The notes under the pieces were generated by a model. The model saw only the letters and a list, made by a program, of their open reading frames with translations. It searched no databases and had not been told where the DNA came from. Shown one piece after another: positions 13,682 through 56,252 of a DNA stretch of 64,000 nt; position 1 is the stretch's first letter; every line of letters begins with the position of its first letter. Made by a program: the position numbers and the translations under genes. The stretch comes from Taenia hydatigena (lineage: Eukaryota; Platyhelminthes; Cestoda; Cyclophyllidea; Taeniidae). The stretch covers positions 6,571,145 to 6,635,144 of the forward strand of contig JADWOT020000002.1 in assembly GCA_036345935.2 (NCBI GenBank), read 5' to 3'.

Positions 13682-15040
13682 TGATAATTGTGTTCCAATT
13701 TCACCAAGAGGGCGTCCAAAAGAGACCCAGTTATTGTGCACCGTGAATGAGCTTACCTAGGACTGCTTAAAAAGCAAAAAGCCATGTTTCCATCCTGCTC
13801 TTCGACTTCAGGACTTAATCAAACATCCTCTTTAAAAAAGAAAAAAAACAAATTTATTAACCTTAAATTTTGATCGCTAAGGCAAGAACGAGAACGACTA
13901 AATATCATTCTCCACTTATTTTTAGGTGAAAACGTCACCTATTCACGCAATGTGAGCTAAAGTGAGAAAATCGTTGGAAGACAATGGCGAGGCTGTGGCG
14001 ATGTATATTCCACCTGGCTCCAAAAATGGGAATAGAAAGCTACGTAAACAAAAGACGAAATAAAAGAGCTTTTCCAAAAGTGAGAACTGCGTTGTTATTT
14101 TTCTTTTAATTAAACCTCTCCACATCTTGCCATGTGATTCCCAACCTAAAGGCATTTAACACCAAGAGGCGTGTCAGTGCAACCACACAATTTGAATGCA
14201 ACTTTGCACCCACTTTTCATAAACCGAAAAATTTGCTTCCGAATAGAAAAATGCTGTTTCCCTCCTTTGCATGAGGAATGGTTTTGCACGCACACTAATA
14301 AACCTTTAGTTTACCCATCGGCAATGCACATTACACATTCGAACATGCAGATGCCTATCCTGCAGAATAGAGAACTATCACGGCATAAACTTACACTAAT
14401 GCATCCGTTCAATGATATGTAATTGCAAAATATGCTTTATTGTCACACTGCGCTTAAAGTGATCGTGAACAGCCTTAGATATAGTGCCTTCGCCGCACGT
14501 ATGCACTGCTAATGTCGTCTGGCTTATGGATCAGTAGTACATTGCTAATGTCTGGGGATCCTGATGCATGGTAAGGAAAGAGACCTCACCACTTCCCACT
14601 ATTGACCCAGTTGTGTCAGTAGGCAACTCATCTCACAGTTCATTCAAGAATTTAGTGCGATAAAACAGGATAATCCCAAGTTAAGAAGCAAAGCCCGTCA
14701 AATCCAACGTCAGGCAACGCATCTGAGAAAACCGAAACATAGCGAAAGCAGGTTAGATGTTCTAAGTTTGCTGGCAATTAAAGTGCACCCAGTCAGTCTT
14801 GAAGTTTAAGATTTCAGAATTAGAAGGCGAAGCTAAAGACCTCCCATTTCAACAAAATCAAGCCGATCGATTAGTGCACATCAGTGTGTCATCAGTAAAA
14901 GTATAGACGAATGAGAGCCTGGTTCAGCGAACAGGGCCGGTAAAGGCAAATTGCAGTGTAGACTCCAACATCATCCTAAAGCGCAAATTGCAATAAAAGT
15001 GGCGCTTAGCGTTACAAAGCTTCTGAGCGGGTGAAATAGC
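13682..15040 (+). repeat. Segmental duplication A1 (copy of B1)
   Basis: About 1.36 kb matching 24585-25930 in the same orientation. The match runs from GATAATTGTGTT at the left end to GCGTTACAAAGCTT at the right. A 112-base sample around 13936/24830 differs at about 17 positions, or roughly 85% identity. Frames are not conserved: the 68-codon frame present in B1 (24844-25050) is interrupted here by a TAA within the same stretch. The segment is therefore probably a non-coding or decayed element. Sequence identity ends abruptly at about 15040, where B1 continues into tandem repeats. Confidence 0.85.
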
Positions 15041-16149
15041 ATTGCGCAACAAACCATATTCTCATCCAATGATAAATAAAAGCCTAGCTTAAGCACTGCT
15101 GGAGGCAAAGATGAAACTCAAGCTCGAACGATATAGCGAAGCATGAAATTAACTGTCAGCAATGTTACGGGTTCGACGCCCGCATGTATTGGGAATTACA
15201 ATAATGCTAGAAATCGAATTCACGCCGGGCACTAATGAAGAAGCGAATCCGTGACATGACACGACATTAATAGCGTCCATCCCTTGCTAGGTCAAAGCTG
15301 ACTTCTGAATATTTCTCAACAAAACGATGAAGGGTGGAAAAGCAGAAGCCAACGCCTGAGGTGTGAAGTGACAGCCGGTATTGTTGATGTGCAAAGGGTG
15401 GGTCAGTTCCAATATTATTACTTCGGTCTTTCCTTGTCACCAAAGGGCTGTGCTCATCTCTTCCGTAGTCGTCGCATACCTCAATCTTTGCATTTTCAGC
15501 GGCGTGCTGATTATTTTGTCAAAATCCCCAGTGAAGAGAGTGAAGAACGAAGATAACGGTTAAAATGCTGCCATAATTTGACCTTTTCTAATACAAACAG
15601 TGTAAGAGGCTCAGTTCGATCTCCTTCCGCTGGCATGTAATAAAATGTAATTAATCGAGCATCAAGATTGAATGCCGAGGGATCAAACTGGTATGCAGTG
15701 TAGCCCACAATTTGCGACTGATTGCAAAAGTGAGTCTGTTGATTTTTGCGCAATTCTGAACAAATCCTCCTGAAACAGTGGAATGGTCTTATTCTCGATG
15801 ACCATCCACTCACTTCAGTCTTACTTGGCCTGAGTCGTAAAACCCAGTTGTGAAAGCAAGTTTTAAAATGGGGTGCATGACATAGAGTTTCCTTGGTAAA
15901 TTGACGCCTAATCACTCTGCACATTATTATGGTAAGTATCTGACAATCCCAGACATTTATTTGACTTCGGTAAGTTAAGAGTTCGGTGATTGGAGGAAAT
16001 TCAGGACCATCTGCTTTCGAATTATTGGAGCGCACATCACACATCCTATTTGCATCATAGTCCAATTCGCAAATAGTTTATTATTTAACAGAACTTCATC
16101 AATCAAAATTAAATTTTGCTTCAAATGCGGATCTGGACATGGATTGCAG
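15041..16149. other. Spacer between A1 and A2, absent from the B copy
   Basis: This 1.1 kb lies between the duplicated segments A1 and repeat R2/A2. At the B locus the same position holds the opposed tandem-repeat arrays (25930-27838). It contains the longest open frame of the window (15511-16065, minus). A lone T-arm-like hairpin near 15168-15184 is not accompanied by other tRNA parts. Confidence 0.6.
15511..16065 (-). CDS. Unrecognised 184-codon open frame
   Basis: This is the longest uninterrupted frame in the window; the first ATG is about seven codons in. I do not recognise a family. Composition looks protein-like, with Trp, Cys, His and charged residues spread through it. There is no signal peptide or hydrophobic segment long enough to span a membrane. 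A rough chance calculation for this base composition gives about 0.2-0.3 frames this long in a 64-kb window, so it is suggestive but not significant. It could be an exon, a decayed element frame, or chance. It sits in the part of the A locus that has no counterpart at the B locus. Confidence 0.3.
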   Translation of the reverse strand: MDYDANRMCDVRSNNSKADGPEFPPITELLTYRSQINVWDCQILTIIMCRVIRRQFTKETLCHAPHFKTCFHNWVLRLRPSKTEVSGWSSRIRPFHCFRRICSELRKNQQTHFCNQSQIVGYTAYQFDPSAFNLDARLITFYYMPAEGDRTEPLTLFVLEKVKLWQHFNRYLRSSLSSLGILTK

Positions 16150-16435
16150 CAAAGGAATGCTAGATGATGCCTCTTGACATCATAGTGGACCTAATATCTC
16201 AATGGGCAATCATAGTGACAAATCGGTGCCTGCGACGCAGTCTTGCCCACGCGACCCTAAAAGACCCATGGTAAACATGAGCTGTCGCTTTAGCTTTCAG
16301 TTGCAGCTAGGTATTTTGGCAATCTGCTTCGGAATTTTCTGATTCTTTGTCCTCTTTCTGGCTCAACTCAAAGCCACGCAGAACTGAGCATGGTCAGATT
16401 GGGGATGGACAGCTATATTTGCATGCCAGATCACA
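16150..16435 (+). repeat. Repeat R, copy 2, running into segment A2
   Basis: Diverged match to 13400-13680, with the same ordered landmarks ending in a GATGGACAG motif. Its last 30 or so bases are also the first bases of the A2/B2 duplication (27839 onward at the B locus), so only the end of R was included in that duplication. Confidence 0.55.
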
Positions 16436-17890
16436 AGGCTAGCTTTAGTTACTAATATTTTAATAAAATCGTTCAACTTATGCCACCAGAGGTGAAAATC
16501 GTGGAGAAAGAAGAATGCGGACAAAACTGTCAGGTTTGAGTCCACTTAAACGCGAATCTTCCAGATAATGCTGGTAGGCCAGCGTAATTATCACAAGCGG
16601 TATAGAAATCTTTGTCTGATGTCCGTGCCTTTCTTCCAATCTTGCCCGCCAGCACTTCATAATCCTTAAATCTGCAAAACATTTTTATGTTTATATACCA
16701 GTCTTGAGCTGAAATGCAGACAACACGAAACAGCTGCATGTATTTGCATTTGCGAAACGCAGCCAACTAGGCACTCTTGAGCACCAGCATCAATATAACA
16801 ATGCGAAGGTGTGCTGCTGGTAATTATGCAACCATTTGTTAACATGATGTTTCACCGCCCACCAAAGTGCGCAACCACTTCCATGCTTAAACCTTGTTTG
16901 AATGCCATAAAGAAGGCCTGACCAAAATGGCAGCCCACAAACTGTAGCTCATTCGAATTGGACGTCGTTGCAGAAGATCCGTGATAGCACATTGCTTGAG
17001 ACCACGTCATGCGCAGTATGTTAGCGGGCTGCGTTTTTGATGAGTCTAGCATAAGTAAATTGGCAAAGAGCGAACTGCACATATTACCAGTCCCAAATCG
17101 CGAGGTGGTCCCATGCATGTGTCATGATGTTTGGGCGGGGCACCACAACACCACGTCAGATCAACAGCTGTAATGCGCTTTAATTATATTGTAACAACCT
17201 TCTCCAGCCAAATGGTAGGCAGATTTTACAAGGTGGAACAAAGATCGTAAGACTAAATGGATTTAGTCCATGTCATGGAATCCAAATCTTCTCGCTCTGC
17301 CCTCTAGAGATGATGATTGTATTCCAACTACGGTGACCTGATTTTATGATCGCATTATTTTAGCATATCTAATGCACAATTAACATCGAAGGAAATTCGA
17401 GCGGAATGTAACATTAATGCTAAAATCAAGAGCGAAAGGAGTTTCGTTGTTCACTGTGCTTGCAAACATGCTGACTGGACATATCTGGCGTGAGAAGTAA
17501 TTATACCGATTCTGCTGTGACACTCAAAATAGGTTTGGGTGATTTCATGTCTCCTAAGTGAGTGTCCTCTCTCGCGATAAGCATAGGACATCGTGCATGG
17601 CAATTGCGTTTAAAAGAGCTTTGTCCGAATTTCCTTGTATTGGAGTACACCTAGCATAATTCGTCGTGGACATTAAGCACGCATTTAGTTAAAATGCATC
17701 GACATCGATATGCAAGCGGAATTGAACTTGTGCCCAAATACCGTGACCCCTTTGCGTAAGGTGTAGGACAACATCAAAAATGCACGAATTTGAAGCATAA
17801 GGCATTTGTTTAATTCGCAGTACAGCGTGAACTCAGTTTTGAGTTGGCGGAAATGGTAAACTCAAGAAAATTAGGTGAACATAAAAAACT
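16402..17890 (+). repeat. Segmental duplication A2 (copy of B2)
   Basis: About 1.49 kb matching 27839-29312 in the same orientation, roughly 85% identical by eye. Clear anchors are TTTAATTATATTGTAACAAC at 17180/28580, CATGTGTCATGATG at 17115/28517, and the shared ending near GTGAACATAAAAAA. The 88-codon minus frame at 16852-17118 is broken in B2, and the 86-codon frame of B2 (29161-29421) is broken here, so neither is likely to be coding. The match stops at about 17890. Beyond it lie the FnIII antigen exons at this locus and tandem repeats at the B locus. Confidence 0.85.
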
Positions 17891-18236
17891 TGTAGTTTCA
17901 GCAGTTGTCAAATCAAAGAGGTTGCACTGGGAATAAGTAAGCATAAGTGAGCAGCATTGCTTCATTACACGCACCATGAAAGCCTATGTTGATAAAAGAG
18001 AGGTCTGGTAATTTTGCATGATTGACCGTGGTTGTAGGCATGCACAAACTGTTGGCAATTTGCACTTACGCACAAGTAAGCTCAAGTACGCCTCAATGCC
18101 GTGCCAGACGGGACCAGACGGAATGGACCCCTGGGCAGATCAGTTGGTCGCCATACCTCCCTCGTCCTCCCTATGCAAACAGACAAGTCATCTCGCAGTT
18201 TGGTAGAGCACATTGCAATCACACTTGCCAGCTTAC

Positions 18237-18530
18237 CGGGAGGTGGTGTTATAACAAATCCATCGTATAGTTCACCCGCCTCTGTGTCCACCAACACTCG
18301 GTATCGAGTTTTGGCCTCCAACCCATCATGCGTGATACTTCCTTGTGAATAATTTACCGTTTTACTTTTGGAGAAGTAAGGTCGATGAGTAGAAACCACA
18401 GTCAGCCTAATCCGGTTCGCGCAGCGCACACCCAACGCTCTCACATCCCAATTTAACGTAATGCTTTGTGGCGTCGCGAAACTCCATCGGAAATGTGCTG
18501 GAAGTGGTTTATTTGCTTCCCTTGTCTCGT
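18237..18530 (-). CDS. EG95/45W-type oncosphere antigen, FnIII exon (partial gene, intact frame)
   Basis: Single 294-bp exon encoding one fibronectin type III domain of the taeniid host-protective antigen family (EG95, 45W, TSOL16/18 type). These are secreted or surface proteins of the oncosphere. Seen directly: the acceptor TTTTATCTTCCAG before 18530, the donor GTAAGC starting at 18236, both in phase 1, and an open frame between. Domain landmarks in order are PLPAHFRW, SITLNWDV (core Trp of strand B), ANRIRLTVVS, a sequon NYS, DGLEAKTRYRVLV (core Tyr of strand F) and GFVITPPP. About 98 residues matches the usual size of the domain exon. Genes of this family normally have a short signal-peptide exon upstream and a hydrophobic C-terminal exon downstream. 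I could not place either convincingly, so the gene is annotated as partial. It lies about 470 bp downstream of a frameshifted paralogue on the same strand and next to duplicated segment A2. Confidence 0.8.
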
Positions 18531-19000
18531 CTGGAAGATAAAATAACTTCAATGCATGATAGCAATCACGCAAGCATTCCGACCCTAATAGGAACGAAAA
18601 TGTGGAACGTTTAATGCTAAGCCATTTGCAATGATGACAGCAAGCCGCATGAATTAAATATGTCTACCCCTAAGTCGCAACAAATTCTTGCTTAATGTGA
18701 ACGCCAATTTACGATTGAAGGGTGCGCAGCATAAATACGAGCATACTTTGTGGGAGATGTTCATTATTAATTCGTGAGTTCAGTCCGTCTTTTACTAAAG
18801 ACATTTTTGGACTCTTTATCTCATGCCATTGGGACGGGTAGTGGACACTTGGCACATGCCTTTCCATCTAGTATCCACTTACAATTTGCTACCAATTAAA
18901 TGGAAAATGAGGCATTAGCACATCACGATGTTCCTTATGCAAATAGACATGCCATGCTTTGGCATGGTGATGCACATCGTAATCGCACTTGCCAGCTTAC
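18531..19000 (-). other. Interval between the two FnIII exons
   Basis: Contains the downstream intron start of the 19.0-kb copy. Its first bases (GTAAGCTGGCAAGTG) are identical to the intron start of the 18.2-kb copy, and similarity continues for about 80 bp, so the duplication included intron sequence. A minus-strand signal-like frame beginning MRLAVIIANGLAL (ATG at 18650) lies about 120 bp upstream of the intact exon, but no phase-1 donor follows it. I do not call it as exon 1. Confidence 0.4.
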
Positions 19001-19306
19001 CAGTGGGCAGTGTTTTTAATGAATCCGTAGAATATAACATCAGAGCTCTCATTTGCGATTGCGTTCACAAACACATGGTATCGTGTGTCGGACTCCAATC
19101 CGTAAAAATGAATATCCCATTCGAAAAATTTCCTTTTTTGCTCTCGAGTAAAAAGGGGTTTGAAGGTGAAAATGCAGTCACTCTAATTTGGTTCGCGTAG
19201 TCCTCGCCCAACTCTTTCACATCCCAAAGAAGCGTAATGGTGTGTGCGCCCACGCAACACCAGTAGAAGTGATTTGGAAGCGGTGTGTGTGCTTCTATTG
19301 CCTCTT
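19001..19306 (-). pseudogene. Second EG95/45W-type FnIII exon, frameshifted
   Basis: A 306-bp paralogue of the 18.2-kb exon. Seen directly: acceptor GCTTTTTACAG before 19306 and donor GTAAGC starting at 19000. The upstream part reads PLPNHFYW, TITLLWDVKEL and ANQIRVTAFSPSNPF, then a sequon NFS. After about residue 62 the domain continues in a different frame (LESDTRYHVFVNAIANESS, then FYGFIKN), while the original frame meets a TGA near 19065. A one-base loss near 19125-19135 explains the switch. Because the exon length is still a multiple of three and the end is out of phase in the shifted frame, a second, compensating indel near the donor is likely. This may be a decayed gene or assembly error. 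An 18-residue hydrophobic frame starting MPHFYLYCILLKL (ATG at 19595) is a weak signal-peptide candidate, but its donor phase does not fit. Confidence 0.75.
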
Positions 19307-20581
19307 CTGTAAAAAGCAATGCGCTCAGCTTAGCAGAACTGTTACTTGTATTGTGGATCGCTTTAAAATAAGGATGTCAGATTTTCCTGCTTTGATAATG
19401 AAAATGCCGTTGTTAAAAGACATAACTACTTGCTGGCCACCTTTAAAATGCAACAATTGACACGCTTGATCCATAGGGGACAGGCGTTTGTAAGTAATTG
19501 CATGTGACGTGTGAGTTTGGGTCACGAGGAAACGCATGTCTTGAAAAATATACTAATAGCTTGAGTAAAATACAGTAGAGATAGAAATGTGGCATGCAAT
19601 TAGTGTGACTTGCTAGCCATTCGCAAACAAATGCCGCCGTCAACCGGTACACATGCAGCTATTTGTGTGAGTGGATGGAAAATTAGGAGTTAGGGTCAAG
19701 TGAATGTAACACGTGAAGCGGAAGCAATTAATAGGTGGGATTTATGCACAAATGCCGATCAGTGTTACTCAGTTGATAAAAACTCACCACCCAGTTCTAC
19801 GCGGCTCTTCGCCAAGTGCGAAATTGCCAGCAGCATAAGGTGCAAGCGAAGTGACATCGTCAAGGAAGAATTGGATTACAAGCATAAATCATGGGGTATT
19901 TATAGGAGTAGGCACTGTTGTATCAGCCTATCAAACGTGTGTTCTTGAACTACAAGGCGACTCCCACATGCGCAGAGTAGTTGATTGTGAAATAGGGTGT
20001 TGGTTTCTGCTCATGAATCAGTGGCCTGCTGCCACATGACCTGTCATGAAGGTGAGTAGACGCGGAAGGTGAAATCAAGCACAAGACCTAATAACGCTAT
20101 AGATCTCAAGATGACTTTCGGATCAACAGCGAGCAAATTGATGCGGTTGAGCAGCCTTGAGATATAAAGCTAATTTAGCAGGACCAAATCACAATCAAGC
20201 GTCCCTGTAGTGCCGATTAAGGACTGACTGTGACTGCCTGTTGGCTCCATCATCACGTCTAGTAGATCCCACATTCATGCGGGAAGAAAGTGATGCCTGG
20301 GAGGAAGGAGGCAAAAAAGCGATGTTTGATAATAGATGAGTTCCAATAAAAATTGTGCTCATAGAACTACACTTGCGAAATTTCTTTAGACGTCAACGCT
20401 GTAACGTGGTCAATGGAGGAATATGCGCGGAAATATGGGTAGATATGCAAGACATGTAAATGTCCTTCAATGTAACGGGATTCTTATCCGTTGTTGAGTC
20501 CGCAATTTTAACTCGCTCTCGTTGACGATCTCCAGCATAAGTGGACCTTGATTGACGAATGGAAGCATCTAAAGTGCATGA
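19307..20581. other. Upstream flank of the FnIII pair
   Basis: About 1.3 kb between the second FnIII exon and the first tandem array. It should hold the promoter and first exon of that gene copy if they survive. Frames on both strands are below 85 codons and unrecognised. No clear promoter motif was identified. Confidence 0.4.
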
Positions 20582-21845
20582 ATGACAACTGACAGAGCTG
20601 TAGGATTAACACATATCTTCCTCTTCCGTTTTGCATGGGTTAGCCTGTGGTGGGAGCAACTATCAGAAATGCCACGCCTTGTGTGCCACCAATCGGCGTG
20701 GAGGGATAGACTAGAACGCATTGCAGTCATGTGAGAGATCTGCAAAATTTGCCTACATTTTACGCCAGTAGTGCAGCCGTATGTATACATTGCCACAACT
20801 TGTGAGCAAGAAATCAGTGTCGAAGGATAATCAAGCATACATAAATGGCAAGTTAGAGACGTACAGGATTCACCCATGTACGCGCGACATTAAAAACGCA
20901 CCGGGTGCCAGTGGTGATTACAAGCTACAGCAATGCCGCTACTTGTGTGCCAACCATCAATTTGGAAAGAAAATCTGCACCTCAAACGATGACATTAAAG
21001 ACACTTGCAGAATTGACTCATATACAATCGAAATCAATCTCACACCAGCCCGTCAGTGGTGGGTGGATGTGTCATAAATGCCACACCTTATTTTCCAATG
21101 GTGTGTGGGGATAATTTAGAACCAATTATTGGAATGATCGATGAGTCCACAATTCACTCATTTTACTCCCGACGTTAGTATCACATCAGCATGTGGGTGG
21201 TAGAGGTAAATGCTAGCAATGCCACAGCTTGTGTGCCACCAATGAACGTGAGGGGATAACCTAGAAAGCAATGTATTCACGTGGCAGATCTGCAGTATTC
21301 CTTACATTATTGCGACTTCAAAAGCACAACGGTGTGTCGGATGTTTGAGTAGGTGCCAGCAATTCCAAAACTTGTGCGCCGAAAGTCAGTAAGGTAAGCT
21401 AATCTAGGCCGGTCCATAGCATTCGAGACACCTGCAGAATTGACTCATGTACAAACGAAATCAATCGCACACCGTCCCGTCAGTGGTGGGTGTAAGTATC
21501 AGAAATGCCACTACTTGTGTGCTAACAATTAGTGTGGAAGGGTAATCTTGACCCCATAAACAGCATGTGACACCTGCAAAACTAATCCACATATTCTCGC
21601 CATCGATATTGCACTAGTCAGCCGGTGTCGAGTGTAAGACTTAGCAGTGCAAGTCTTGTGTGTCATAAGTCAAAGTGGAGGGATATTTTAAGGCGCTTAG
21701 CTGGCAACTGATAGAACTGTGGAACTTATACACATTTGCCTCATCCATTTCACACTGGTCAGTTGGTGGTGGGATTAAGCGTTAGCAATGCCACACCACG
21801 TGTTCTATTAGTTATTGTGAAGGGATAACATAGACTCGATGATGT
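20582..21845 (+). repeat. Tandem array 1, forward half (about 143-bp monomer, nine units)
   Basis: The anchor AATGCCACAACTTGTGTGCC and variants recurs at about 20671, 20792, 20935, 21080, 21221, 21364, 21507, 21647 and 21790. Spacing is 140-145 bp except for one short unit of 121 bp. Each unit continues with a CACCAATCAGTGTGGAGGGATAA-like stretch, then TCTAGAC, CTGCAGAATTGACTCATGTA, and CACACCGGCCCGTCAGTGGT before the next anchor. Units differ from each other by roughly a fifth to a third by eye, so the array is old. The minus frame of 102 codons at 20569-20877 is a by-product. Confidence 0.9.
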
Positions 21846-22545
21846 AAGCAAATTCTGAAGGTCTTTTACATGCCATCTATGGGACTGGACAATCCCAACA
21901 CACCGATTGGTGTGACAGACGTATGGGGCTTAATGTCGCAAGAATGTGAGTAAATTCTGCAGGTTTCCCACTTAACTACAGGGCTTTATAGATTAACCCT
22001 TCAAACGATTGGTGGCACACAATTTGTGTCACAGCGGACACCTGCACAACTACCGACTGACCCGTGGGAAATGGGAGAGGCAAATATGCATAAATTATGC
22101 AGTTCTGTCATGAGCCATCTATGTGGATTAGACTAAACCTCTACAGTGACAATTAAACAAAATTTGAGCAATGCAAACACAAGCTCACCACCGACAGATC
22201 GCTTTACGATTAATGCGTAGGGAATGTGGGCTAATTCCGCGGTTCTCTCACATGCCATCAATGAAGTTTAGATTATCTCTCCGCACTGATTAATAGAGCA
22301 TGTGGTGCGTCATTGCTAGCGCTAAATCCCACCGCTGACTGATCTGTGTGACATAGAAGAGGCAAATATAAGCAAATTAAGCAGTTCTGTCCATTGCCAG
22401 CTATAGACCTTAAAATATCTCTCCACCCTTCTTTGTGGCACAAAAGATATGCATTGCTAAGTCTTACAGCCAACACCGACAGGCTGGTGTAATATTAATG
22501 GCGAGAATATATGAAGCAGTTTTACAGGCATAACATGCTTGCGTC
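21846..22545 (-). repeat. Tandem array 1, reverse half (about five units)
   Basis: The same 143-bp monomer on the opposite strand, beginning immediately after the forward half. The complementary anchor (GGTGGCACACAATTTGTG and variants) appears near 21908, 22011, 22155, 22290 and 22432. The junction is at about 21840-21860, with no spacer visible, so the two halves form a very large imperfect inverted repeat. The array decays near 22545. Confidence 0.85.
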
Positions 22546-24584: not shown

Positions 24585-25930
24585 TTGATAATTGTGTTAA
24601 ATTTCACCGAGAGGGCATCCAGAAGAGACTCAATTATTGTGCACCGTGAATGAGCTTACCTAGGACCGCTTAATAGCAAAAAGCCATGTCTCATCCCGTT
24701 GTTCGACTTCAGGACTTAAGCAAACATCCTCTTTGAAAAAACAAATTTGTCAACCCTAAATTTTGATCGCTCAGGCAAGAACGAGAAAGATTAAAAGTCA
24801 TTTCCAACTCAATTATTAGGCGAAGACGCCACCTATTCACACAATGCGAGCTAAAGTGAGAAAATCACTGGAAGACAATGGCGAGGCTGCGGCGAAATAT
24901 ATTTCACCCGACTCCAAGATCGGGAATAGAAAGCGATGTAAACAAGAGACGAGATGGAAGAGCTTTCCCAAAAGTGCGAACTGCATTGTATTTCTTTTAA
25001 ATAAACCTCCTCACAACTTGCCATGTGATTCCCAACCTAAAGGCATTTAACACTAAGAGGCGTGTCAGTGCAACCACATAATTAGAGTGCAGATTTACAC
25101 CCACATCTATAAATCAAAAAATTTGCTTCCAGGATTAGAGATGTTGTTTTCTTCCTTAGCATGAGAAATGGCTTCGAACATACTCTAATAAGCGTTTAGT
25201 TTAAACATCGGCAATATAAACCACACATTCAAACATGCCGATTCTTATCTCGAAGAATGGAAAACCGTCTCGGCATAAATTTGCACTAGTGCGTCCATTT
25301 AATGATATGTCAGTGCAAAATAAGCTTTATTGTCACACTACGCTTAAAGCGATTGTCAACATGCTCAGATTTGATGCCCTCGCCGTCCACATGCACTGCT
25401 AATACTGCCCGGCTCATAGATTATGAGTACATTGTTAATGTTTGGAGGATTCTGGTACATGGTAGGCAAAGAGACTTCACCACTTCCCGCTATTAGTCCA
25501 GTTGTGTCAATAGGCAACCAACCTCACAGTTTACTCAAGAATTTAGTGAGATGAAACAGGGTAACCCCAAGTAAGGCAGCAAAGGCCGTCAAGTCCAACG
25601 TCAGGTGACGTATCTAAGAAACCCGAAGTATAGCAAAAGCTGGTCAGTTTTTTAAGTTTTGCTAGCAATAAAAGTACACCCAGTCAGTCTCAAAGCCCAA
25701 GACTTAAGTATTAGATAGCAAAGCTTAAGACTTCCTTTTTAACAAAATCAAGTCGATCAATTAGTGCACCTCGGTGTGTCACCAGTAATAATATAGCCAA
25801 ATAAGAGAGTGATTCAGCGAACAGGGCCAGTGAAGTCAAAGTGTTGTGAGAACTGCCAACATGAATTCAAAGCGCAGGTTGCAATAAGAGTAGCGCCTCG
25901 CGTTACAAAGCTTTCGAGCGGATGGTTTAG
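24585..25930 (+). repeat. Segmental duplication B1 (copy of A1)
   Basis: Direct-orientation copy of 13682-15040, about 10.9 kb downstream of it and about 85% identical by eye. It contains a 68-codon frame (24844-25050) that the A copy does not keep. The copy ends at about 25930, and the next bases are the start of a tandem-array monomer (CAGTCCGTCAGTGGTGGGTG), so the breakpoint lies exactly at the array edge. Confidence 0.85.
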
Positions 25931-26290
25931 TATGGCACACCAGTCCGTCAGTGGTGGGTGTAAGTGCAAAAATGCCACACCTTATTTTCCAATAGTGTGT
26001 GGGGATAATTTGGGCCCAATTATTGGAATGTCAGATAAGTGCAGAATCCACCCACTCACTCTTGACATTAAATTCACATCGGTATGTGAGTGGTGGGTGT
26101 AGGTGTTAGAAACGCTACAACTTGTGTGCCACCGATCATTAAGGACGGCTAATGTAGACGTCATAGACAGCATTTGGGACGTCTGCAGAATTTACTTATG
26201 TGCTTCCAACATCAATCTCATACCGGTCGTTCAGTGGTGCGTGTATCAGAAATGCCACAAATTGTTTGAAGCATCTTCAAAACGGGAGTG
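25931..26290 (+). repeat. Tandem array 2, forward arm (about 2.5 units)
   Basis: Anchors at about 25974, 26114 and 26254 (spacing 140). The individual monomers match, in the same order, those of array 3 (29474, 29614, 29758). The first match is also seen in array 1 at 21080 (monomer with TTATTTTCCAATAGTGTGTG). This is a shared higher-order arrangement, not random monomers. Confidence 0.85.
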
Positions 26291-26871
26291 CAGTACAGTG
26301 AGTGCCAGAAATGCATTCTCAAAATTTTGTATCTTTCTTATGGAAGTCACAAATTCCATCGTATCCCTTACTTAGTAATGATGACTTCCTGAACATATCA
26401 AAGCACTTATGAGCTGATGCTGATTTTGTAAGTTGATCCACTCGCAATAACTGACCATAGATTTAGTCACAGAAATTCTGGCCGTATTTAGTCTCTAAAT
26501 GCTTCTCAGTGCACCCGATTGCTAATGAGCGCGGAAGTTGGAAGTGAAATCAGCAAAAAGAGATCCATAACAGATTACACCCCAAATGGCTACGGCCTTG
26601 CAATAAGAGAAGTGCAAGTCTGCAAAGAATGCGTGGAAAATCCGATAAAGAGCATTGACTGAAAATATGGCACAGACTGTGCTAGCAAACTGAGCTTAGG
26701 ACGAGTCACCAATAAAGGCAAGTCGAGCTCTATGAAACATACATGATCTATCAAGTCGTAATGGGCACATTTGAAAAGGCTGATAAACATGAGAAAATAA
26801 TGGCGCCAGTAGAAGCCTGCAGAAGGGAGCCGTCTAATCATAGTTAATACGAAATTTAAGCGTATCACAAA
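26291..26871. other. Spacer between opposed arms of array 2
   Basis: About 580 bp of unique sequence between forward and reverse arms. The best frame is 92 codons on the minus strand (26590-26868), rich in hydrophobic residues and unrecognised. In a foldback-element model this would be the loop or cargo. No transposase is visible. Confidence 0.5.
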
Positions 26872-27838
26872 TGACGTGTCATTGCCGACAGTTCACCCCA
26901 ACACTGGCAGACCGGTGCGGGGTAGTAGATGCGAGTAATTAGGGCAAAGATGAAGGCATATCACATGCCATCCAAGCGATCTTATATACTCACCAGACTG
27001 CTTGGTTGCCAATAGGTTGCTGCAATTCTGACACGTATTTCTACAATCAGCAGGGAAGTGCGACTTTAAACAAGGAATTAAGCGCAGGAATTCTAAAGGC
27101 GAATCGCATGCCATTAAGGCGGTCTAGATTTTCACTCTACACTGGTTGGAGGCGCACAAGTTGACGCATTGATAACACTTTAACCCCCCACTGACAAACC
27201 CGTGTGATGTTAAAGACGCAAGAGTGTAATTAACTTCTGAAGGTCTCTCACATGCTATCGATGGGGTCTGGATAATCCCAACACACCGATGGGTGGCACG
27301 CAAGATGTGAAACTACTGACATCACCGCCTACCAATGACAGACAGGTGTGAGTTTAAAGTCCCAAGAGTGTGAGTAAATTCCGCAGGTCCTCCACAGAAC
27401 TACAAGGCGTTATAGGTTAGCCCTCCACACCGATTAGTGGCACACAATTTGTGACGCAGTGAACACTGACAAAACTGCCGATTGACCTGTGGGAAATGGA
27501 AGAGGCAAATATGCGTAAATTATGCAATTCCGTCAAATGCTATTTGTGCTGATAAATGGCACACAATTTGAGCATTGCGAACACTTAAGGCCACCACCGA
27601 CACACCGGCTTGAGATTAATATCCAGGGAATATGGATCAGTTTCGAGGGTCTCTTACATGCTATCTATGGGATCTAGATTATCCCCCCACACTGATTGAT
27701 AGAACACGTGGTGTAGCATTGCTAACGCTTAATCCCACCACCGACCGACCTGTGTGAAATGGAAGAGGCAAATATGTGCAAGTTCTGCAGTTCTATCGAT
27801 TGCCAGCTAAGCGCCTTCAAATATCTCCCCACACTGAT
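26872..27838 (-). repeat. Tandem array 2, reverse arm (six to seven units)
   Basis: Complementary anchors at about 27004, 27151, 27292, 27437, 27557 and 27698. Spacing is 140-147 bp with one short unit of 120 bp. Several units align best with specific units of the reverse half of array 1. For example, 27377-27540 matches 21958-22110, including GTGGGAAATGG and AGAGGCAAATATG. The arm ends exactly where segment B2 begins. Confidence 0.85.
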
Positions 27839-29312
27839 CGGAAATGGACAGCCATGTCTGCATGCCAGTTCACAAGACTAGCTTGAGTTATTGATATTCA
27901 GATGAACTCGATTAACTTCTGCCAATTACCACAAGCAGTTCAGAAATCTTGGTCTAACATCTGCGCCTTCCTTTTTATCTTGCTCGCCAGCGCTAAATGA
28001 TCTTTGAATCCGCTAAGTATATATATATTCATGCACCAATCTTAAGCCAAAACACAGTCAACGCGAAACAGCTGCTTGTGCGTGCATTTGCGAAAGGCAG
28101 TTAACTAGGCAATCTTGAGCACCACCATCAATATAACAACGTGGAGGTATGTCAAACTTAAACCACCAATCGAAATGCTGGAGTGACAATGTCAAAATCT
28201 GTTATTTCCCGTAATTATATGGTTATTTTGTCACCATGATGTATTGCCGCCCATCAAAGTGTGCAACCACTCCCATGTTTAAACCTTGTTTGAATGCCTT
28301 GGAGAAGGCCTAAGACAGTTAGAACTGCACTGATCGAAGCAACAATTCACAAACTGTAGTTCATTTAGATTGGACCACGGTGCGGAGAACCCGTGACAAC
28401 AGTGTTTAAGATCATGTCATGTTAGTGGACTGTTTGTGATGGGTCCAGCATAGGTGAAATTGACAAAGAGCGAACTGCGCATACTATCAGACCCAAATCG
28501 CGAGGCGGTCCAATGCATGTGTCATGATGTGTGGACGTAGCACCACAACGCCGCATCATATCAACAGGAGCAAGGCGCTTTAATTATATTGTAACAACCT
28601 TCTCCAACCAAATGATGGGCAGATTTTACAAAGTAGAACAAGGATCTTATGCGAAATGAATTTTGTCCATGTCATAGGAGTCTGGATTTTCTCGCCCTGC
28701 CCTCAAGAGATGATAATTGTTTTTTTTAAATAAGGGCACTTGATTTTATGATAGCATCATTCCAGCATATTTGATGCGCAATAAACATCGAGAAAAATTC
28801 GAGTGGAGTGCAACAGTAATGCTAAAACTAAGAACAAAAGGATTCCGTTGTTCGCGGTGCATGCTAACATGCTGAATGGGCACGCTAAGCAAACCCTTTC
28901 TCATTTAACGCGAGAAGTAATGATGCCAATTCTGCTGTGAGACTCAAAATTGGCGTGGGTGATTTCATGTCGTCAAAGTGAGTAATTTTTTCTCTCTCAC
29001 GACAAGCGTAGGACGTCATGCGTGACAATTGCGTTAGAAAGAGCTTTATCCAAATTTTTCTGTATTACGGCGTACTCCCAGCATAATTCTTCGTAGACAT
29101 TAGGTACGCATTTAGTTTGAATGCATTGAAACTGATTTGTTAGCGGAACTGGGCTTGGGTCTAATGTTGTGTCTCCTTTGCGTGGAATGCAGAACACCAT
29201 GAAAAATGCAAGAATTGGAGGCATAAGACACTTTTTTGATTCGCAGCACAGCGTGAACTCAGTTTCGAGTTGGCGGAAATGTTAAACCCAAAAGAATAAG
29301 GTGAGCATAAAA
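27839..29312 (+). repeat. Segmental duplication B2 (copy of A2)
   Basis: Direct-orientation copy of 16402-17890, about 85% identical by eye. It is flanked on both sides by tandem-array sequence: reverse arm on the left, forward arm on the right. The 75-codon and 86-codon minus frames here (28997-29224 and 29161-29421) are interrupted in A2 and are not supported as genes. There is no counterpart of the FnIII exons after B2. Confidence 0.85.
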
Positions 29313-29800
29313 AATAAGCTAGTGCAAAGCCACAACTTATGTGCCAACCATCAGTTTGAAAGGCAAATCTAGACCCCAAAGATGAAATTAAAGACACCTG
29401 CAGAATTGATTTTACATGCAATCGAAATCAATCTTACACCGGCCCGTCAGTGGTGGGTGTAGGTGTCATAAATGCCACACTTTAATTTCCAATAGTATGT
29501 AGGGATAACTTAGACCCAATTATTGAAATGCTAGATAAGTGCAGAATTCTCCCATTTGCTCTCGACATTAAATTCACATCAGTATGTGGGTAGTGGGTGT
29601 AAGTGTTTGCAATGCCACAACTTGTGTGCCACCAATCGTTAAGGACGGCTCATCTAGACGCCATGGATATACTTTGGGGCATCTGCAGAATTTACCTATG
29701 TACTTCCCACACCAATCTCATACCGGTCGTTCAGTGGCGGGTGTAAGCATCAGAAATGCTACAAGTTGCATAAAGCATTGTTAAAACGAAATGCTCTGAG
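29313..29800 (+). repeat. Tandem array 3, forward arm (four units)
   Basis: Anchors at about 29329, 29474, 29614 and 29758 (spacing 145, 140, 144). Monomer order matches array 2 forward, and the first two monomers match array 1 at 20935-21200. The array stops near 29800 with AAAGCATTGTTAAAACG, which is similar to the end of array 2 forward (AAGCATCTTCAAAACG near 26280). The forward arms therefore share the same right-hand boundary. Confidence 0.85.
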
Positions 29801-31538: not shown

Positions 31539-34500
31539 GTATGTCTGATTTTGCTCATTCGCATGCATCTTGACCACTATCTGCGTTACACAAATTACAT
31601 ACTCAACGAATTATTTGGTAAAGGGAAATAAGAATCGTCTCCTTAGCTTCCGAATTAGCCAAGATAAATATGATGTAAATAGTTTATTGCAATGCGAATT
31701 TTCACAATTAAGTTTCTCACGTAATTAAACTGCGTTGCATGCAACCATTGTGTGTTTATCTTAGCAAAGTTAAAAGGCAGTTCAAACCATGTCTGCAGCG
31801 AGCTTTGCGCCCTTTGAGACCACGTTCTTACATACTGTCGTTGATGTACGTTTACTTAGCCAGCAGCACTTTTCAATTTTGCAGCTTCCATACTAAAAAT
31901 ACAACTTCAGCTGCATGAAGTTTCTACTAATCAGTTCCCGCAAGTTTCTTACGAACTATGACAATTCCGTTTGATTCATGAAGACACAATTTCGACTATG
32001 TCCATGGATTCTATGTGCAAAGGCGCGCAGAATGATTAGCGTTGGTGATCGCGACAATTGTGATCATGCATGCCAGTTTGTCCTTTCCCTTAAATTGAAG
32101 CATTTCTGTTAATGACACAAACGCCTGGCCGAATCGCATGCGCAAAAGTCGGCTGGTGCGAGTGACAACCTATAAAGTCGCCCAATGGAAACCGCAAGTG
32201 TACAGTTGGGAACAAAATAGAAAGCGACGGGAAGCAACGCCAGTTTTGTCTTGCATTATTAGCCGTGACATCTTCAAAAGATGTGCATTTCTAGATTCAT
32301 TTGCCCTATCCCAAAATGTGCTCGAACTAGATAGGACGATGCAAGTATTGCCGTGTCAGACCTAGCCTCGTCTTAAGTACCCGTGAGTTTTACAACATAA
32401 TGCCTCTCAGTTAGCAAGAGTGCCGTCCCGTAAGTCAAACGAGTAATTACAGGTCATTTTGTTTGACTTGCCCATTAAACTAACTTTTGCCCCAATTTGG
32501 CTCATGTCAACACACAGACCTGTGCAGAACCTCACTATGCCTGATGAAATAAATAATTGCTGCGGTCGGAGGTTTGCATTTGCGGACCTCTTACATGGTG
32601 GGTTGCAAATACGATAATTGCGCACGTTTGCTTATGGCGTTTCTTTATGCCAGATTATAGCACCTGTTTTCGATTTCGCGCAAATACTTCACTAGTTCTG
32701 AATAGTTTTAAGTGAAACGCCTTTATTTATGCATTGCCTTAACCAAGTAGGTGTTGTAATTGTAGCAAAATTCTAATGCAAATCTCATTAGTGGTTGTTA
32801 GCTATTCTGCTTTGCTAGCAGGCTGTGGCCAACTGTTTTGCATCGCTCACTTATCTATGTGTTTTATGCATCACAGTTAAGTATTTCATAATTTGACAGC
32901 CCTTACATTCGCAGATCGATTCGTCTGCCATAAATCTCATTATTGAAGCAAGAATAAAAAATTAATGCAATGCCCATACGTTTGCTACTTTCTAGGAGCA
33001 TGACACACATAGTGGGTTGACTTCTCCAAAATAACATGTCTGCTAATATGTAGCTACTATATGCGGTTGCGTGCCGAGATTAGCAGCCACTGATCAAAAC
33101 CTCAGGTGGTGCACATTAGCCCCGTCAGGTCAACAAAAGTCTTAGCATTCTCCCTCTTGATACCATGATCTTCACAGTGTCAGGTGCAAATATGCCATGT
33201 TTTCGTCAATAGAATAAGCGCTTTGCACAGACTCTCGCTCAATAACGGCTATTTCACTGCAGCATCAAAGAGCCACGCACAGAAAGGGCCTTGCTCTCAT
33301 CACTCTTCAAATGGTGCCACATTGGTCCCGACTACATTAAACATAGTCGAGATGCAGAAAATTGGGCAGAAACTACAAAGATGCAGTTAGGCTGACTGCA
33401 GTGAAAATCACCTGCTTCTGCTTCGAGGTGAACTTTACAGCGTTCTCAAACCATGACGCCAATCTCAAGGACTGGGTTACAATGCGACCTGCAGTGCGGC
33501 AGTGGAAAGAGCAAGCATTGTAAGCCTCGTTGCTAGTCGCACCAAACTTATTAAATCGTCGCCTGATGGTATGTTTGAGTGTGCGTCTTCAATGCACAAA
33601 TCCCTATTTGATTCCTTGGTATGTGCTAATTTTGTTGTTATCTGATCTGTTAACGATTTTTGCCTCGCTGTTTATGGTTGCATTATGGACGCATACGATG
33701 CAGCATCATTAATTTCATGTAAGTCAGTGCGAATGCCAAAAGCGGATAGATTGCAGGATAACCACAGCTCACAACATGCGACTATTGAAGAGAACTTTGG
33801 TCCATTAAGGACCGCTGCCTCTCACCCATAACGCATTCTATAAAGTATGCATAAGTGATGCATTCAATTTCAAGCGCCCTCCTTTTTTTATACGAAAGAT
33901 ATTCAAATCTTGCATGCGAGCTCATTTCTCCCACAACAAAGAATGAATGAGATTGGGTTGCTTGGTTCCTGATTGTCCAGCTGCTCTATACGCTAAGAAT
34001 GAAGTTGTGTGCGCGTAACCTTGGGTATACTGGTCTGAGGATTCGATTTAAAAAAGCTCTCACCTCGATATCAGTCTTTAAGTAAATGACAAGCGTTTCG
34101 GCTAATCGAAGCAAATTGGTGCTTATTTGCCTTCAGCACTTGCTTCCCGTAGCCATAGTTAATCATTCCCATCTCGACGCTGTATTGAGGTTATTTAATT
34201 CGCAAGTGCTCAACACTTCTTGCATAATTTACTTCTCATATTGCATCCTACGTGGCATGCAAAGTGTTTTCGACGGCACTTGCCCCAGCAAGTTCGTATT
34301 ACTTTATGTGATATGCAGATGCTTTTGGCGGGGTGCTATGAACCCTGTGAGATTGGTCCATTTGTCTTTGATAGGCATTATTCCGCCACGTCGCCATTGG
34401 TAATATTTGCAAAGTGTCTTTATAACGTTGCGGTTATACGATTGAATAATGGTACTGATTTTTCCACAAGTATTAGGAATTTCTTAAGTTGAAGCACCCC

Positions 34501-37390
34501 AACTGCTTCCAGTGTCAAAACCATGTGGCGCACGACTTGCACCATCGGTGCTTTTCTGAGGGCACATCAGCAAATTGCACAGGTTTTGGAATCATTCCCG
34601 AACACACAGTGCATTGCTTTTCTAGGAAATACGTTTCAATGCAAATTACTCCAATTGTAGATGTGAATGCACGCATGATGCAGTGCTTATAAAGGGTGGC
34701 TTAGTGCGTTCATTTATTCTGTTATGATGCTAAGATTCCAATCTTTGCTGCCCTTGCAGGATGAAATCCATTGCCAATCATGCGTCCCTCCAAGGCATCT
34801 CTATCCCAACATATTGGGGAACTTTCCCGTTCATGGCGTCAAGGGATGGGACAGCCAAGAGCAAAATCTAAGACTTCAGGGCTAAGGAATGTTTTTTTGT
34901 TTCTGCAGGTATGTTCAGGTACCAGTCAACTTAGCCCACATGATAAAATAACAGAGCACATATTCCAATCAAATTTTGTAACAGTAAGGTACGTATGTGC
35001 ATTAGAACATGTCTTGTTGGTTATAAAGGCAAAACGTAACCTTCCGATTAGAGAATCATGGGAATTATGCATGATATCAAGGGTATCGCAATATGCACGC
35101 GCGTGAAGCAACCATGAACTACAATGCAACAATTGTTGGCAGCTAAGAAATCGCAATAAAATCAACGTATCCCAAGGAATTAAACAACTACTTACATATT
35201 AAAACTGCACGCTTCAGCTTTGTACTCGTGACTCTGTGATAACCTCGATGCAGATGAATACGAGGCTCACAATGCTCAGTACTTCCACCATCGTGTTGCA
35301 GGTCGAAGCAATTAAATCCTACTGCTCTCAGCCTAACTGCATCTGCGTTGTGTTCATCCAATTCTCCAACGTTCGAGCTTAATTCAATGAAGTCAGAACC
35401 AATGTGGTTCTAATTGAAGAATGACGGGAGCAAAGACCTTTCCGTACTTGGCCTTCCTGTTACTGTCACAAAACAGTGCGATGTTAAGAACGCCTGGTTC
35501 ATTCACCAACGGAATCTTAGGCCATTTGCACCCAATACCAGTGTATGGGAATAATTCAGAACTTGCACACCTAGCAAAATATGTTGGGGCAATAATTTAA
35601 GCAGCGGTACTATCCATTCGAGAAGAAAACGGCCGCGTAAAAAGATGGCGAACGTGCATGCTACGCTGACTCTACTGCGGCGCTGCTTATCAGTCTGAAG
35701 GACTAAGAAGCAAAACGGAAAGGAACATGAAAACAACCCTTCAGCGCTAACAACTTTATTGTTAAGATTTAAAGTTTTGTTTTTCTAAAGCGCATATTAT
35801 CAGAAATGTTGTGAAAAGCTCCTTATTAAGGACCAATTATGATCACCACTTCAATCTTGTGACAATCTGAGTGGGTCATGCATGCGGTAACGACGCATCC
35901 AAAGCTTTTTTGCTGGTTGGATTTTATCCACTACTGTCCGATTTCTCTTAGCTGTAGGAGCAAGCAGTAGAGAATTGCATGCGACAAAGGAATGTTTATT
36001 GACTTATTTATAGTGTTTTACGCTTTAATAGACGAAACATTGCGTTTCCCTATGGAAAGTGATCTGCTCAATGCATTAAATTCATCAGTACTTCCATTAT
36101 TGACATGCCACATCCAAAATGTTTTAATGCTGGCTAGACAATTTTGGGTGTGGTGGGCATATTGAATGGATTTACATTTAAATGCAACTTTTGGCTCCAC
36201 TAACAGCGCTACTCTCAACTTCTATCCTGCGTAGCAATACCTAATGTGTTTTGTTTGACACTTGATGCTTGAAATATTCTTAATTTTGTGCGGAGGAGGC
36301 AGAATTGGTGTGGGTGTGGGATGAAAGTCAGCATCATTGTTGTTGACATCTTTTTAAGGAAGATATGACTGGAAGTCTAATGCTGCATACTGCCTCGACT
36401 TTCCGCAGCATAGACAATGCAACCTGCCCTGACTTGTGTGCATCACGTCTGAGTTCAATCTAACAGCCTTGCAAAAATTTGATGTACTGCACTCCGGTAG
36501 GATGCCATGAACTTCGGCCCTTGCAAAAATACATCTGTCACTAGCTGCTGATGAAGACCACTTAATCTTTTGAAGCATGGTTGGGTTTTATAGCACGTTG
36601 TCCTCAGCGCGCAAGCAACCGTTTTAATCCCATGCACAGTGGCTTCAAGGTACAACAATCGCAAATAAAGTGATCATTCGCCATTCATGCATAATAATAC
36701 CCATCGCAGCAACATGCAATTTTTGAGCAATGAGAGTAGCATATTTGGAACAAAATCATGGGCCACAGTGTCACATGTATCCGTGTTTGGCGCGCTCTAC
36801 GTTGATGTCAAAGGCAACTGATCAACATCTTGTTGAGCATTGGAGCTTCAATAAAATAAAAAACAATTGCGATAGTTTTGGCTGTGTGCGGATGGGAAAG
36901 TGCCAGTTTTCTGTGAAACTAATCAAATAGTTATTGATGGTCCAAAGCATAATAATATTCTCGTAAGTCCTTTTGCAATGCAAGTCGATGTTTTATTATG
37001 ACACGCATAAATAGGGCTGCATGGGATGTGCTGTGACGACAGCAGTGGGACCAACTTGCTGAAACTCATTGATCGACTCTTAGTAACTCTGTCCAAATGA
37101 AGAAAGAAGAAGCTTCATTTAAAACCATGATTAAGTCCAGAGAACGTGCAATCCTTCGTTTCCTCGACATCAAGCATAAGTCGCGGCGAGTCATTGTCAT
37201 CGGATCATAAGTCAACTATTGCACTGATGGCCCTACAGCATACACTTACGTTTCTCAGACTCTTCGCGCACGTATTTTACAAGTGTTTTTAGACTCGTAT
37301 GCGTTATAGTCCTCATAAATTGTTCAGGTTGCAAAGAACAAATCAAAAGGACAATGCGCTGTGCCATAGATGCTATGTTGGATTAATGCA
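31539..37390. other. Unannotated DNA, no gene recognised
   Basis: Nearly 6 kb with frames up to 111 codons (34086-34403 and 34771-35106, plus strand), none with a recognisable motif, signal peptide or conserved pattern. No tandem arrays or copies of other parts of the window were noticed. It could include introns of a larger gene. Confidence 0.45.
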
Positions 37391-38010
37391 ACACTGACCC
37401 AAAAGCAAAAAAGTTCAACTCCTGCTATCGGTACCACCTCAAGGCTACGATGATGACACGAAACAATTAAACTTTGATCAATCGAAGATCGACTAACGCA
37501 TCGCAAGCACAATTGAATATGGCATGAACGCTTAGTGCCACCATGGGCAGAATCAAGTACGGCAGTCAATCATGGATCCGATTTTACGCCCACATTCCTC
37601 CTCGCCATTATTTCCAACGCTGATAACGATGCGTGTTATTGGCAGGCAGCCTCATAAGTACGTCATTGACTAAGACGTTAAGAAGCCTCTCCAGCCAATA
37701 TTGCGAACAGTGGTAGTGATGGAGGCGACGCAGCCAGTGTTGTTTAGAGGCTGAATATTGCAACACGGTAATACCGTACTGACAAGCCTTAAGTATAAAA
37801 TTGATATCTAATGCTACTCACTCATGTCTCCATACCTATCACAATATAATACTCCGGTGGAAACGAAATTCCCTTTCGCCATAGCTTAGGCTGGCATATC
37901 TTTCGGTAAGTCCCTTTGTTCGGCTTTTATCCTAATAAATGAGACTTCATTTCCTACAACAACATTCTCTCCTAATTCAAATTACCTTCCGCATGCCTAC
38001 CTATCAAACA
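37391..38010 (+). repeat. Long direct repeat, copy 1 (about 97% identical to 63386-64000)
   Basis: Both copies begin at the same base (ACACTGACCCAAAAGC) after unrelated flanks and remain aligned to the end of the window. By eye there are about 15 substitutions and one 3-bp indel over about 615 bp. Frames of 78 codons (minus) and 60 codons (plus) that are open in copy 2 are both interrupted here, each by a single base change (TGA and TAA). Coding function is therefore unlikely. The sequence to the right runs into the GGTGG-rich block at 38.56 kb, which may belong to the same element. Confidence 0.85.
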
Positions 38011-56152: not shown

Positions 56153-56252
56153 NNNNNNNNNNNNNNNNNNNNNNNNNNNNNNNNNNNNNNNNNNNNNNNN
56201 NNNNNNNNNNNNNNNNNNNNNNNNNNNNNNNNNNNNNNNNNNNNNNNNNNNN
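56153..56252. other. Assembly gap, exactly 100 Ns
   Basis: A run of exactly 100 N characters, the conventional placeholder for a scaffold join of unknown length. Open frames drawn across it are meaningless. Confidence 0.99.

What the first reader, a model, noticed from the sequence alone, without database searches (positions are those of the whole stretch)
18237..19306. Tandem pair of EG95/45W-type FnIII antigen exons
Two exons on the same strand, about 470 bp apart, show the ordered landmarks of the taeniid host-protective oncosphere antigen domain. Both have phase-1 splice sites and nearly identical intron starts (GTAAGCTGGCAAGTG). This is the only confidently recognisable gene family in the window and fixes the likely taxon. 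The spacing is very tight for complete three-exon genes, so the downstream copy's first exon would have to lie within about 470 bp.
Basis: partly seen in the sequence, partly recalled or inferred. Interest (0 to 1): 0.75.

Follow-up and report, generated by a model that had tools for sequence, protein, structure and literature searches.

The report
Tapeworm vaccine-antigen gene, one exon broken
This stretch of tapeworm-like DNA appears to hold one gene of the family used in livestock tapeworm vaccines, with two side-by-side copies of its main protein domain, one of them apparently broken; it is a new example of a known gene kind rather than a new kind of system.

Summary
The exons are real and the coordinates exact, but they probably form one gene, not two. 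On the minus strand lie a 70-nt signal-peptide-like exon (19857-19788), FnIII exon B (19306-19001, 306 nt) and FnIII exon A (18530-18237, 294 nt), all junctions phase 1. Published EG95 peptides find B and A as the two best places in the window (E 1e-9 and 6e-9; next 0.15). Exon 1 + A aligns to EG95 without a gap over residues 15-105, in register (0 of 5000 shuffles). Exon 1 and exon B have the EG95 exon lengths. Two FnIII domains in one gene is the Taenia solium TSOL45-1 layout, where a splice form lacks exon II. Here exon B does not read through: the homology changes frame and the spliced frame meets a stop (19067-19065). If the assembly is right, only a product without a complete exon B, such as an exon-skipping single-domain form, could be made. 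The last exon is tentative. A paralogous segment lacks the gene; one probable FnIII-exon relic (35.4 kb) and one weak one (33.3 kb) lie nearby. Expression, species and assembly errors were not testable.

The parts
19897..19904 (-). TATAAATA box, 40-47 bases upstream of the A of the start codon
   Evidence: Sequence. A TATAA box is also named for Eg95-1 (PMC8894454 figure legend).
19788..19857 (-). Exon 1, 70 nt: MSLRLHLMLLAISHLAKSRVELG plus one base; signal-peptide-like by hydropathy; donor GTGAGT
   Evidence: EG95 exon 1 spans sites 5-74, i.e. 70 (PMC2671473 Figure S1 legend). One of 7 signal-peptide-like phase-1 first-exon candidates (two of them nested) in 64 kb, both strands. In-register identities with EG95 begin at residue 23.
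19001..19306 (-). FnIII exon B (exon II), 306 nt, phase 1-1, reading frame disrupted; stop in the spliced frame at 19067-19065
   Evidence: EG95 peptides hit it at E 1e-9. EG95 exon 2 spans sites 699-1004, i.e. 306.
18237..18530 (-). FnIII exon A (exon III), 294 nt, phase 1-1, open reading frame
18168..18236 (-). 5' part of the intron after A, matching 18932-19000 after B
   Evidence: 54 of 72 columns identical, first 15 bases identical; exons A and B: 190 of 297 columns.
17913..18004 (-). Tentative last exon (92 nt with stop): DLSFINIGFHGACNEAMLLTYAYLFPVQPL; intron 232 nt, phase 1
   Evidence: The only candidate between 16500 and 18237 that meets criteria which I set after seeing the list; such candidates occur at 0.2 per 400 nt (32 on the minus strand of 64 kb), so weak. 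EG95 exon 3 spans 95 sites.
17889..20921 (.). 3.0-kb stretch carrying the gene; no counterpart in the paralogous segment 24586-29768
   Evidence: 13682-17888 matches 24586-29314; 20922-21374 matches 29316-29768 at 75%, so the flanks are adjacent there.
35320..35430 (-). Probable relic of an FnIII exon with an in-frame stop
   Evidence: Profile of EG95 + A + B1: 14.7 bits, E 0.0011; best of 30 random 64-kb windows 11.3 bits. EG95 alone only E 0.15-0.16.
33291..33446 (+). Weak second relic, inverted duplicate of the 35.4-kb one
   Evidence: DNA match 33272-33402 to 35321-35452, 73%, E 1e-12; profile only 5.3 bits, E 0.95, within the range of random windows.

Best explanation
This is a single member of the taeniid EG95/45W oncosphere-antigen family with the TSOL45-1 type of layout: a signal-peptide exon, two tandem phase-1 FnIII exons, and a short last exon. 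The shared phase and the conserved intron starts suggest that the second FnIII exon arose by duplication of exon plus intron start. The protein would be secreted, its FnIII domain forming a compact adhesion-type beta sandwich at the oncosphere-host interface (function inferred from the family). Because exon B is frame-disrupted while its splice sites and its length modulo 3 are kept, the layout allows exon B to be skipped, which joins exon 1 in frame to exon A. So the gene is either limited to a one-domain product like TSOL45-1B, or is a decaying pseudogene. Shown here: exon sequences and phases, homology to EG95, predicted FnIII fold of A, disruption of B in this assembly. Inferred: one transcription unit, splicing and skipping, last exon, secretion, function.
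For: EG95 peptides find B and A first and second in the window, E 1e-9 and 6e-9, next 0.15. Exon 1 + A vs EG95: score 96, shuffle mean 25.5, maximum 59, 0 of 5000; B1 vs EG95: 102, maximum 51, 0 of 5000. The first 91 columns of the exon 1 + A alignment (residues 15-105) have no gap. Against another published EG95 fragment, 12 of 34 identities at residues 24-57 in fixed register; 0 of 100000 shuffles. Controls with solved structures: EG95 14-139 finds no PDB sequence at E<=10; B1 finds no FnIII protein at E<=10, only two unrelated chains at E 0.92 and 1.4, but scores 31.1 bits with EG95; A scores 27.0 bits with EG95 in one domain, while its best PDB match, fibronectin, reaches 27 bits only as a sum over three repeats, the best single one 9.8 bits. 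Fold of A. Exon lengths 70 and 306. TSOL45 mRNAs encode two, one or no FnIII domains, and TSOL45-1B lacks exon II (PMC3383989).
Against: No transcript data. The last exon is weak. By whole-sequence score, exon A matches fibronectin (27 bits, E 3.6e-5) as well as EG95 (27.2 bits); only the per-domain scores, register and exon layout separate the two. B2, the shifted piece of exon B, is not significant against EG95 (340 of 5000 shuffles reach it; 99 of 5000), nor is A against EG95 94-139 alone (1096 of 5000). Pfam fn3 for A (16.9 bits) is below the curated cut-off of 25, and the two B pieces hit no family. Identity to EG95 is low (30 of 108 aligned positions). The frame disruption could be an assembly error. 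An alternative first exon with a poor donor (18650, MRLAVIIANGLALNVPHF, donor GTTCCT) lies between B and A. That TSOL45-1 exons II and III each carry one FnIII domain is my inference from the passages.
Confidence: 0.78

Rival explanations
1. Two separate, tightly packed EG95-like genes in tandem, each with its own first and last exon.
For: Neighbouring family genes are plausible: the gene numbers EmuJ_000368610 and EmuJ_000368620 suggest neighbours (PMC4836691 table passage; adjacency is my inference from the numbering). An alternative first-exon candidate for A exists at 18650, and short last-exon candidates exist between B and A.
Against: No signal-peptide-like phase-1 exon with a GTAAG/GTGAG donor lies between B and A; the candidate at 18650 has donor GTTCCT and would leave an intron of 65 nt. 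None of the 14 last-exon candidates there combines a pyrimidine at -3 with a hydrophobic stretch of 1.0 or more.
Confidence: 0.12
2. The whole locus is a dead pseudogene: exon B broken, last exon lost or unrecognisable, no product.
For: Exon B disrupted. Last exon not secured. The family has known pseudogenes: eg95-7, and an E. vogeli copy with a stop in exon 1 (PMC2671473 passages). One probable and one weak relic nearby and a gene-less paralogous segment.
Against: Exon 1 and exon A are open with good splice sites, and a TATA box stands upstream. Differences between A and B1 fall somewhat more at third codon positions (18, 23, 26 of 64) with pN 0.32 below pS 0.46; in the shifted piece 6, 3, 8 of 18, pN 0.30, pS 0.35. 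This hints at past coding constraint but does not date the loss.
Confidence: 0.35
3. Exon B is intact in the animal and its frame changes are assembly errors, so this is an ordinary two-domain TSOL45-like gene.
For: Exon B keeps a length divisible by 3 and the EG95 exon 2 length, and both parts of the domain remain recognisable in their own frames. The exon contains short A and T runs (sequence), and the window holds a 100-N gap.
Against: Nothing direct; reads were not available. Pseudogenes are known in the family.
Confidence: 0.3
4. An unrelated animal FnIII protein (for example a fibronectin-like or receptor gene fragment).
For: Exon A matches human fibronectin at E 3.6e-5 to 4.2e-5 for the whole chain, as high a total score as with EG95.
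Against: That fibronectin score is a sum over three repeats, none above 9.8 bits; B1 finds no FnIII in the PDB at E<=10; EG95 peptides match both exons far above shuffles; exon sizes, phase and residue register fit EG95.
Confidence: 0.03

Closest known systems
TSOL45-1 of Taenia solium (45W family)
   Same: Secretory signal plus two FnIII domains from one gene; a known splice form (TSOL45-1B) lacks exon II and one FnIII domain (PMC3383989: passages and section 2.1 read). A 16-residue signal is given there; the exon 1 peptide here has a plausible cut after residue 16 (my reading, no predictor run).
   Different: Here exon II is frame-disrupted.
EG95 of Echinococcus granulosus
   Same: 70-nt exon 1 and 306-nt exon 2 (site ranges in the PMC2671473 Figure S1 legend), phase-1 junctions (deduced from those lengths), residue register from the start codon, about 28% identity.
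   Different: EG95 genes have three coding exons with most of the one FnIII domain in exon 2; this locus has two FnIII exons.
eg95-7 pseudogene and the E. vogeli eg95 copy
   Same: Broken members of the same family (PMC2671473 passages).
   Different: The E. vogeli stop is in exon 1; here exon 1 is open and exon B is broken. The nature of the eg95-7 lesion was not read.
Tm16/Tm18 of Taenia multiceps (16k/18k families)
   Same: Secretory signal exon, FnIII exon, three coding exons (PMC2706984 passages and figure legend).
   Different: Single FnIII domain.

Membership tests
EG95/45W taeniid oncosphere antigen family | Sequence homology to a family member beyond generic FnIII | tested here: met
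   EG95 peptides vs exon 1 + A and vs B1: 0 of 5000 shuffles reach either score; window E 1e-9 and 6e-9. Controls: EG95 finds nothing in PDB at E<=10; B1 finds no FnIII there; A finds fibronectin, but at 9.8 bits at most per repeat of the best chain against 27.0 bits with EG95. Only EG95 was available as a family member.
EG95/45W taeniid oncosphere antigen family | FnIII fold | tested here: met
EG95/45W taeniid oncosphere antigen family | Signal-peptide exon 1 of about 70 nt joined in phase 1 to the FnIII exon | tested here: met
   Sequence model; EG95 site ranges from PMC2671473. Signal judged by hydropathy, no signal predictor run; splicing itself not shown.
EG95/45W taeniid oncosphere antigen family | Short last exon after the FnIII exon | tested here: inconclusive
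   Candidate 18004-17913, chance density 0.2 per 400 nt, criteria set after seeing candidates.
EG95/45W taeniid oncosphere antigen family | Taeniid host genome and oncosphere expression | not testable with these tools
   The genome search did not complete; no RNA data.
TSOL45-type two-FnIII gene | Two FnIII exons behind one signal exon | tested here: met
   DNA arrangement; one alternative first exon for A with a poor donor noted. Transcript not shown.
TSOL45-type two-FnIII gene | Both FnIII exons open | tested here: not met
   Exon B has a stop in the spliced frame at 19067-19065 and homology in two frames. Holds for this assembly only.
TSOL45-type two-FnIII gene | Alternative splicing that drops exon II | not testable with these tools
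   No transcripts available; phases permit it.

The most novel reading that the evidence does not exclude
A two-domain antigen gene whose first FnIII exon has decayed while the gene stays alive by constant skipping of that exon, so that a formerly optional splice form became the only product. It would be a natural example of how alternative splicing buffers exon loss in a vaccine-antigen family, with a gene-less paralogous segment and a probable exon relic nearby as other stages of the same birth-and-death process.
Probability: 0.2. Interest if true: 0.45.

Novelty: new member of a known kind. Interest (0 to 1): 0.3.

Why it matters
Members of this family are the basis of livestock vaccines against hydatid disease and cysticercosis. 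Knowing which copies are single-domain, two-domain or broken matters for annotating the family and for interpreting antigens. The locus also shows exon-level duplication and decay in one place: two tandem FnIII exons with a conserved intron start, one of them broken; one probable and one weaker relic; and a paralogous segment without the gene. I could not check whether this locus is already annotated in a public genome.

Tried and rejected
Two complete tandem genes: looked for a first exon for A and a last exon for B in the 470 bp between them; only weak candidates. A generic FnIII protein: the total score of A with fibronectin equals that with EG95, so I checked single repeats and exon B, which speak for EG95.

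Searches without result: the protein database (2 candidates, none at E<=10); genome contigs (84 pattern matches, none confirmed by tblastn); Rfam at gathering scores (0); tRNAs (0); Pfam on 10 other window ORFs (two matches below the curated cut-offs, eight ORFs with none at E<=1), so most ORFs of the window were not scanned.

Weak or negative results: A against EG95 94-139 alone, 1096 of 5000 shuffles reach the score; B2 alone, 99 of 5000 and 340 of 5000; EG95 20-63 alone against A and B1 only E 0.33 and 0.56 at the PDB search size, and EG95 94-139 alone against A, B1 and B2 no hit. DNA comparison of exons A and B with the 33-kb and 35-kb places: of four pairs, two reached the maximum of 200 shuffles (34 vs 34; 39 vs 38) and two lay near the mean. 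The profile that supports the 35.4-kb relic contains A and B1 themselves; a further profile match near 40.6-41.9 kb (9.1 bits, E 0.063) is below the best random window and was dropped. The filters of HMMER were off in my own comparisons, not necessarily in the PDB searches.

Not done: a family tree with 45W, TSOL16, TSOL18 and TSOL45, because no full sequences of them were reachable here; a signal-peptide predictor.

Full report
Observation. Both are bounded by AG and GT, both are phase 1 at each end, and both are followed by GTAAGCTGGCAAGTG. The 15-mer occurs twice in the window, both times here. The copies match each other at 66% over 386 DNA columns (E 5e-17), and exon A finds B at 60.8 bits against a best of 28.5 bits in 200 shuffles. 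The starts of the two introns are better conserved than the exons: 54 of 72 columns identical, the first 15 bases without change, against 190 of 297 columns in the exons.

Controls against generic FnIII. The EG95 stretch finds nothing among 177635 distinct PDB sequences at E<=10. B1 finds no FnIII protein there, only two unrelated chains at E 0.92 and 1.4, yet scores 31.1 bits with EG95. Exon A is less clear-cut: its best PDB match, fibronectin 6xay, reaches 27 bits (E 3.6e-5), the same total as with EG95 (27.2 bits). That total is a sum over three fibronectin repeats, the best single one 9.8 bits with gaps, whereas EG95 gives 27.0 bits in one domain. Together with register and exon layout this puts both exons in the EG95 family.

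Gene model. A 70-nt exon, ATG at 19857 to 19788, encodes MSLRLHLMLLAISHLAKSRVELG plus one base, with donor GTGAGT and a TATAAATA box at 19904-19897. In EG95, exon 1 covers sites 5-74 (70), exon 2 699-1004 (306) and exon 3 1222-1316 (95) (PMC2671473 Figure S1 legend). Joined to A, the residue numbers match EG95 from the start codon: G23, E25, T26, P32, L33, H36, F37, Q45, I47, L49, W51, V53 and L56 are shared with the PMC7244849 peptide, and the alignment with the other EG95 version has no gap over residues 15-105. Signal-peptide-like phase-1 first exons are rare: 7 candidates, two of them nested, in 64 kb on both strands. Between B and A none passes the same test; one at 18650 has a poor donor, GTTCCT. 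One gene with two FnIII exons is thus the simplest model. It is the layout that I infer for TSOL45-1, whose mRNAs encode two, one or no FnIII domains, TSOL45-1B lacking exon II (PMC3383989, passages and section 2.1). The last exon is uncertain: 18004-17913 is the only candidate meeting criteria that I set after a first list, and such candidates are expected at 0.2 per 400 nt.

Exon B is broken in this assembly. Its spliced frame reaches a stop at 19067-19065, while the middle of the domain matches A in another frame. Its length and splice phases are intact, so a transcript that skips B is in frame from exon 1 to A. A versus B1 differences (18, 23, 26 at codon positions 1-3 of 64 codons; pN 0.32, pS 0.46) hint that both once coded for protein under mild constraint. 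Whether the disruption is biological or an assembly error cannot be settled without reads.

Surroundings. The segment 13682-17888 has a diverged copy at 24586-29314 (81% and 74% in the two main blocks), and 20922-21374 matches 29316-29768 at 75%. The 3.0 kb between them, 17889-20921, which holds the gene, is missing from that copy. Loss there seems simpler than gain here, because the right flank lies inside a divergent repeat of about 143 bp that also occupies 20570-20921; this is inference. A profile from EG95, A and B1 finds one more place, 35430-35320 on the minus strand, with an in-frame stop (14.7 bits, E 0.0011; best of 30 random windows 11.3). Its inverted DNA duplicate near 33.3 kb (73%, E 1e-12) scores only 5.3 bits. 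I take the first as a probable relic and the second as a weak one; direct DNA comparison with exons A and B was at or near chance.

Taxon. The family is reported as apparently absent from Spirometra erinaceieuropaei, with zero codons listed for Hymenolepis microstoma (PMC4265353 passages), and the window's GC of 42.4% is like E. granulosus (42.2%, PMC8894454 passage). This fits a taeniid but does not prove one; the own-genome search did not complete.

Function. From the literature: EG95 gene products were localised to oncosphere penetration glands (PMC8894454 passage), and the antigen is described as GPI-anchored and probably involved in cell adhesion (PMC4836691 passage). For this locus, secretion and an adhesion-type role are inferred from signal exon and fold. 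Verdict: a new member of a known family, of moderate interest because of the broken exon.

Noticed in passing
13682-17888 and 24586-29314: Diverged direct segmental duplication (81% and 74% in the two main blocks); between the blocks the second copy carries the 143-bp-type repeat (25936-26284 and about 26866-27838) where the first copy has mostly other sequence; the second copy lacks the antigen gene.
   Followed up: partly
20570-22530, 25930-27840, 29316-29790: Divergent tandem repeats of about 143 bp, matching one another in both orientations; Tandem Repeats Finder did not list them, probably because the units are too unlike.
   Followed up: partly
35320-35430 (-) and 33291-33446 (+): One probable and one weak FnIII-exon relic of the same family, lying in inverted duplicates of each other.
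   Followed up: partly
63386-64000 and 37391-38008: 97% identical 0.6-kb direct repeat that runs up to the window end, by far the least diverged long repeat in the self-comparison; it may be a recent mobile element.
   Followed up: no
62001-62746 and 57720-58467: 87% identical inverted repeat of 0.75 kb; one ORF in it, 57782-58072, gave only a Pfam match below the cut-off.
   Followed up: no
56153-56252: A run of exactly 100 N, probably an assembly gap, so the window is likely a scaffold and small assembly errors are possible.
   Followed up: no
18168-18236 and 18932-19000: The intron starts after A and B match better (54 of 72 columns) than the exons do (190 of 297), with 15 identical bases at the donor; this could be gene conversion, a splicing signal or fast-changing exons.
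   Followed up: partly
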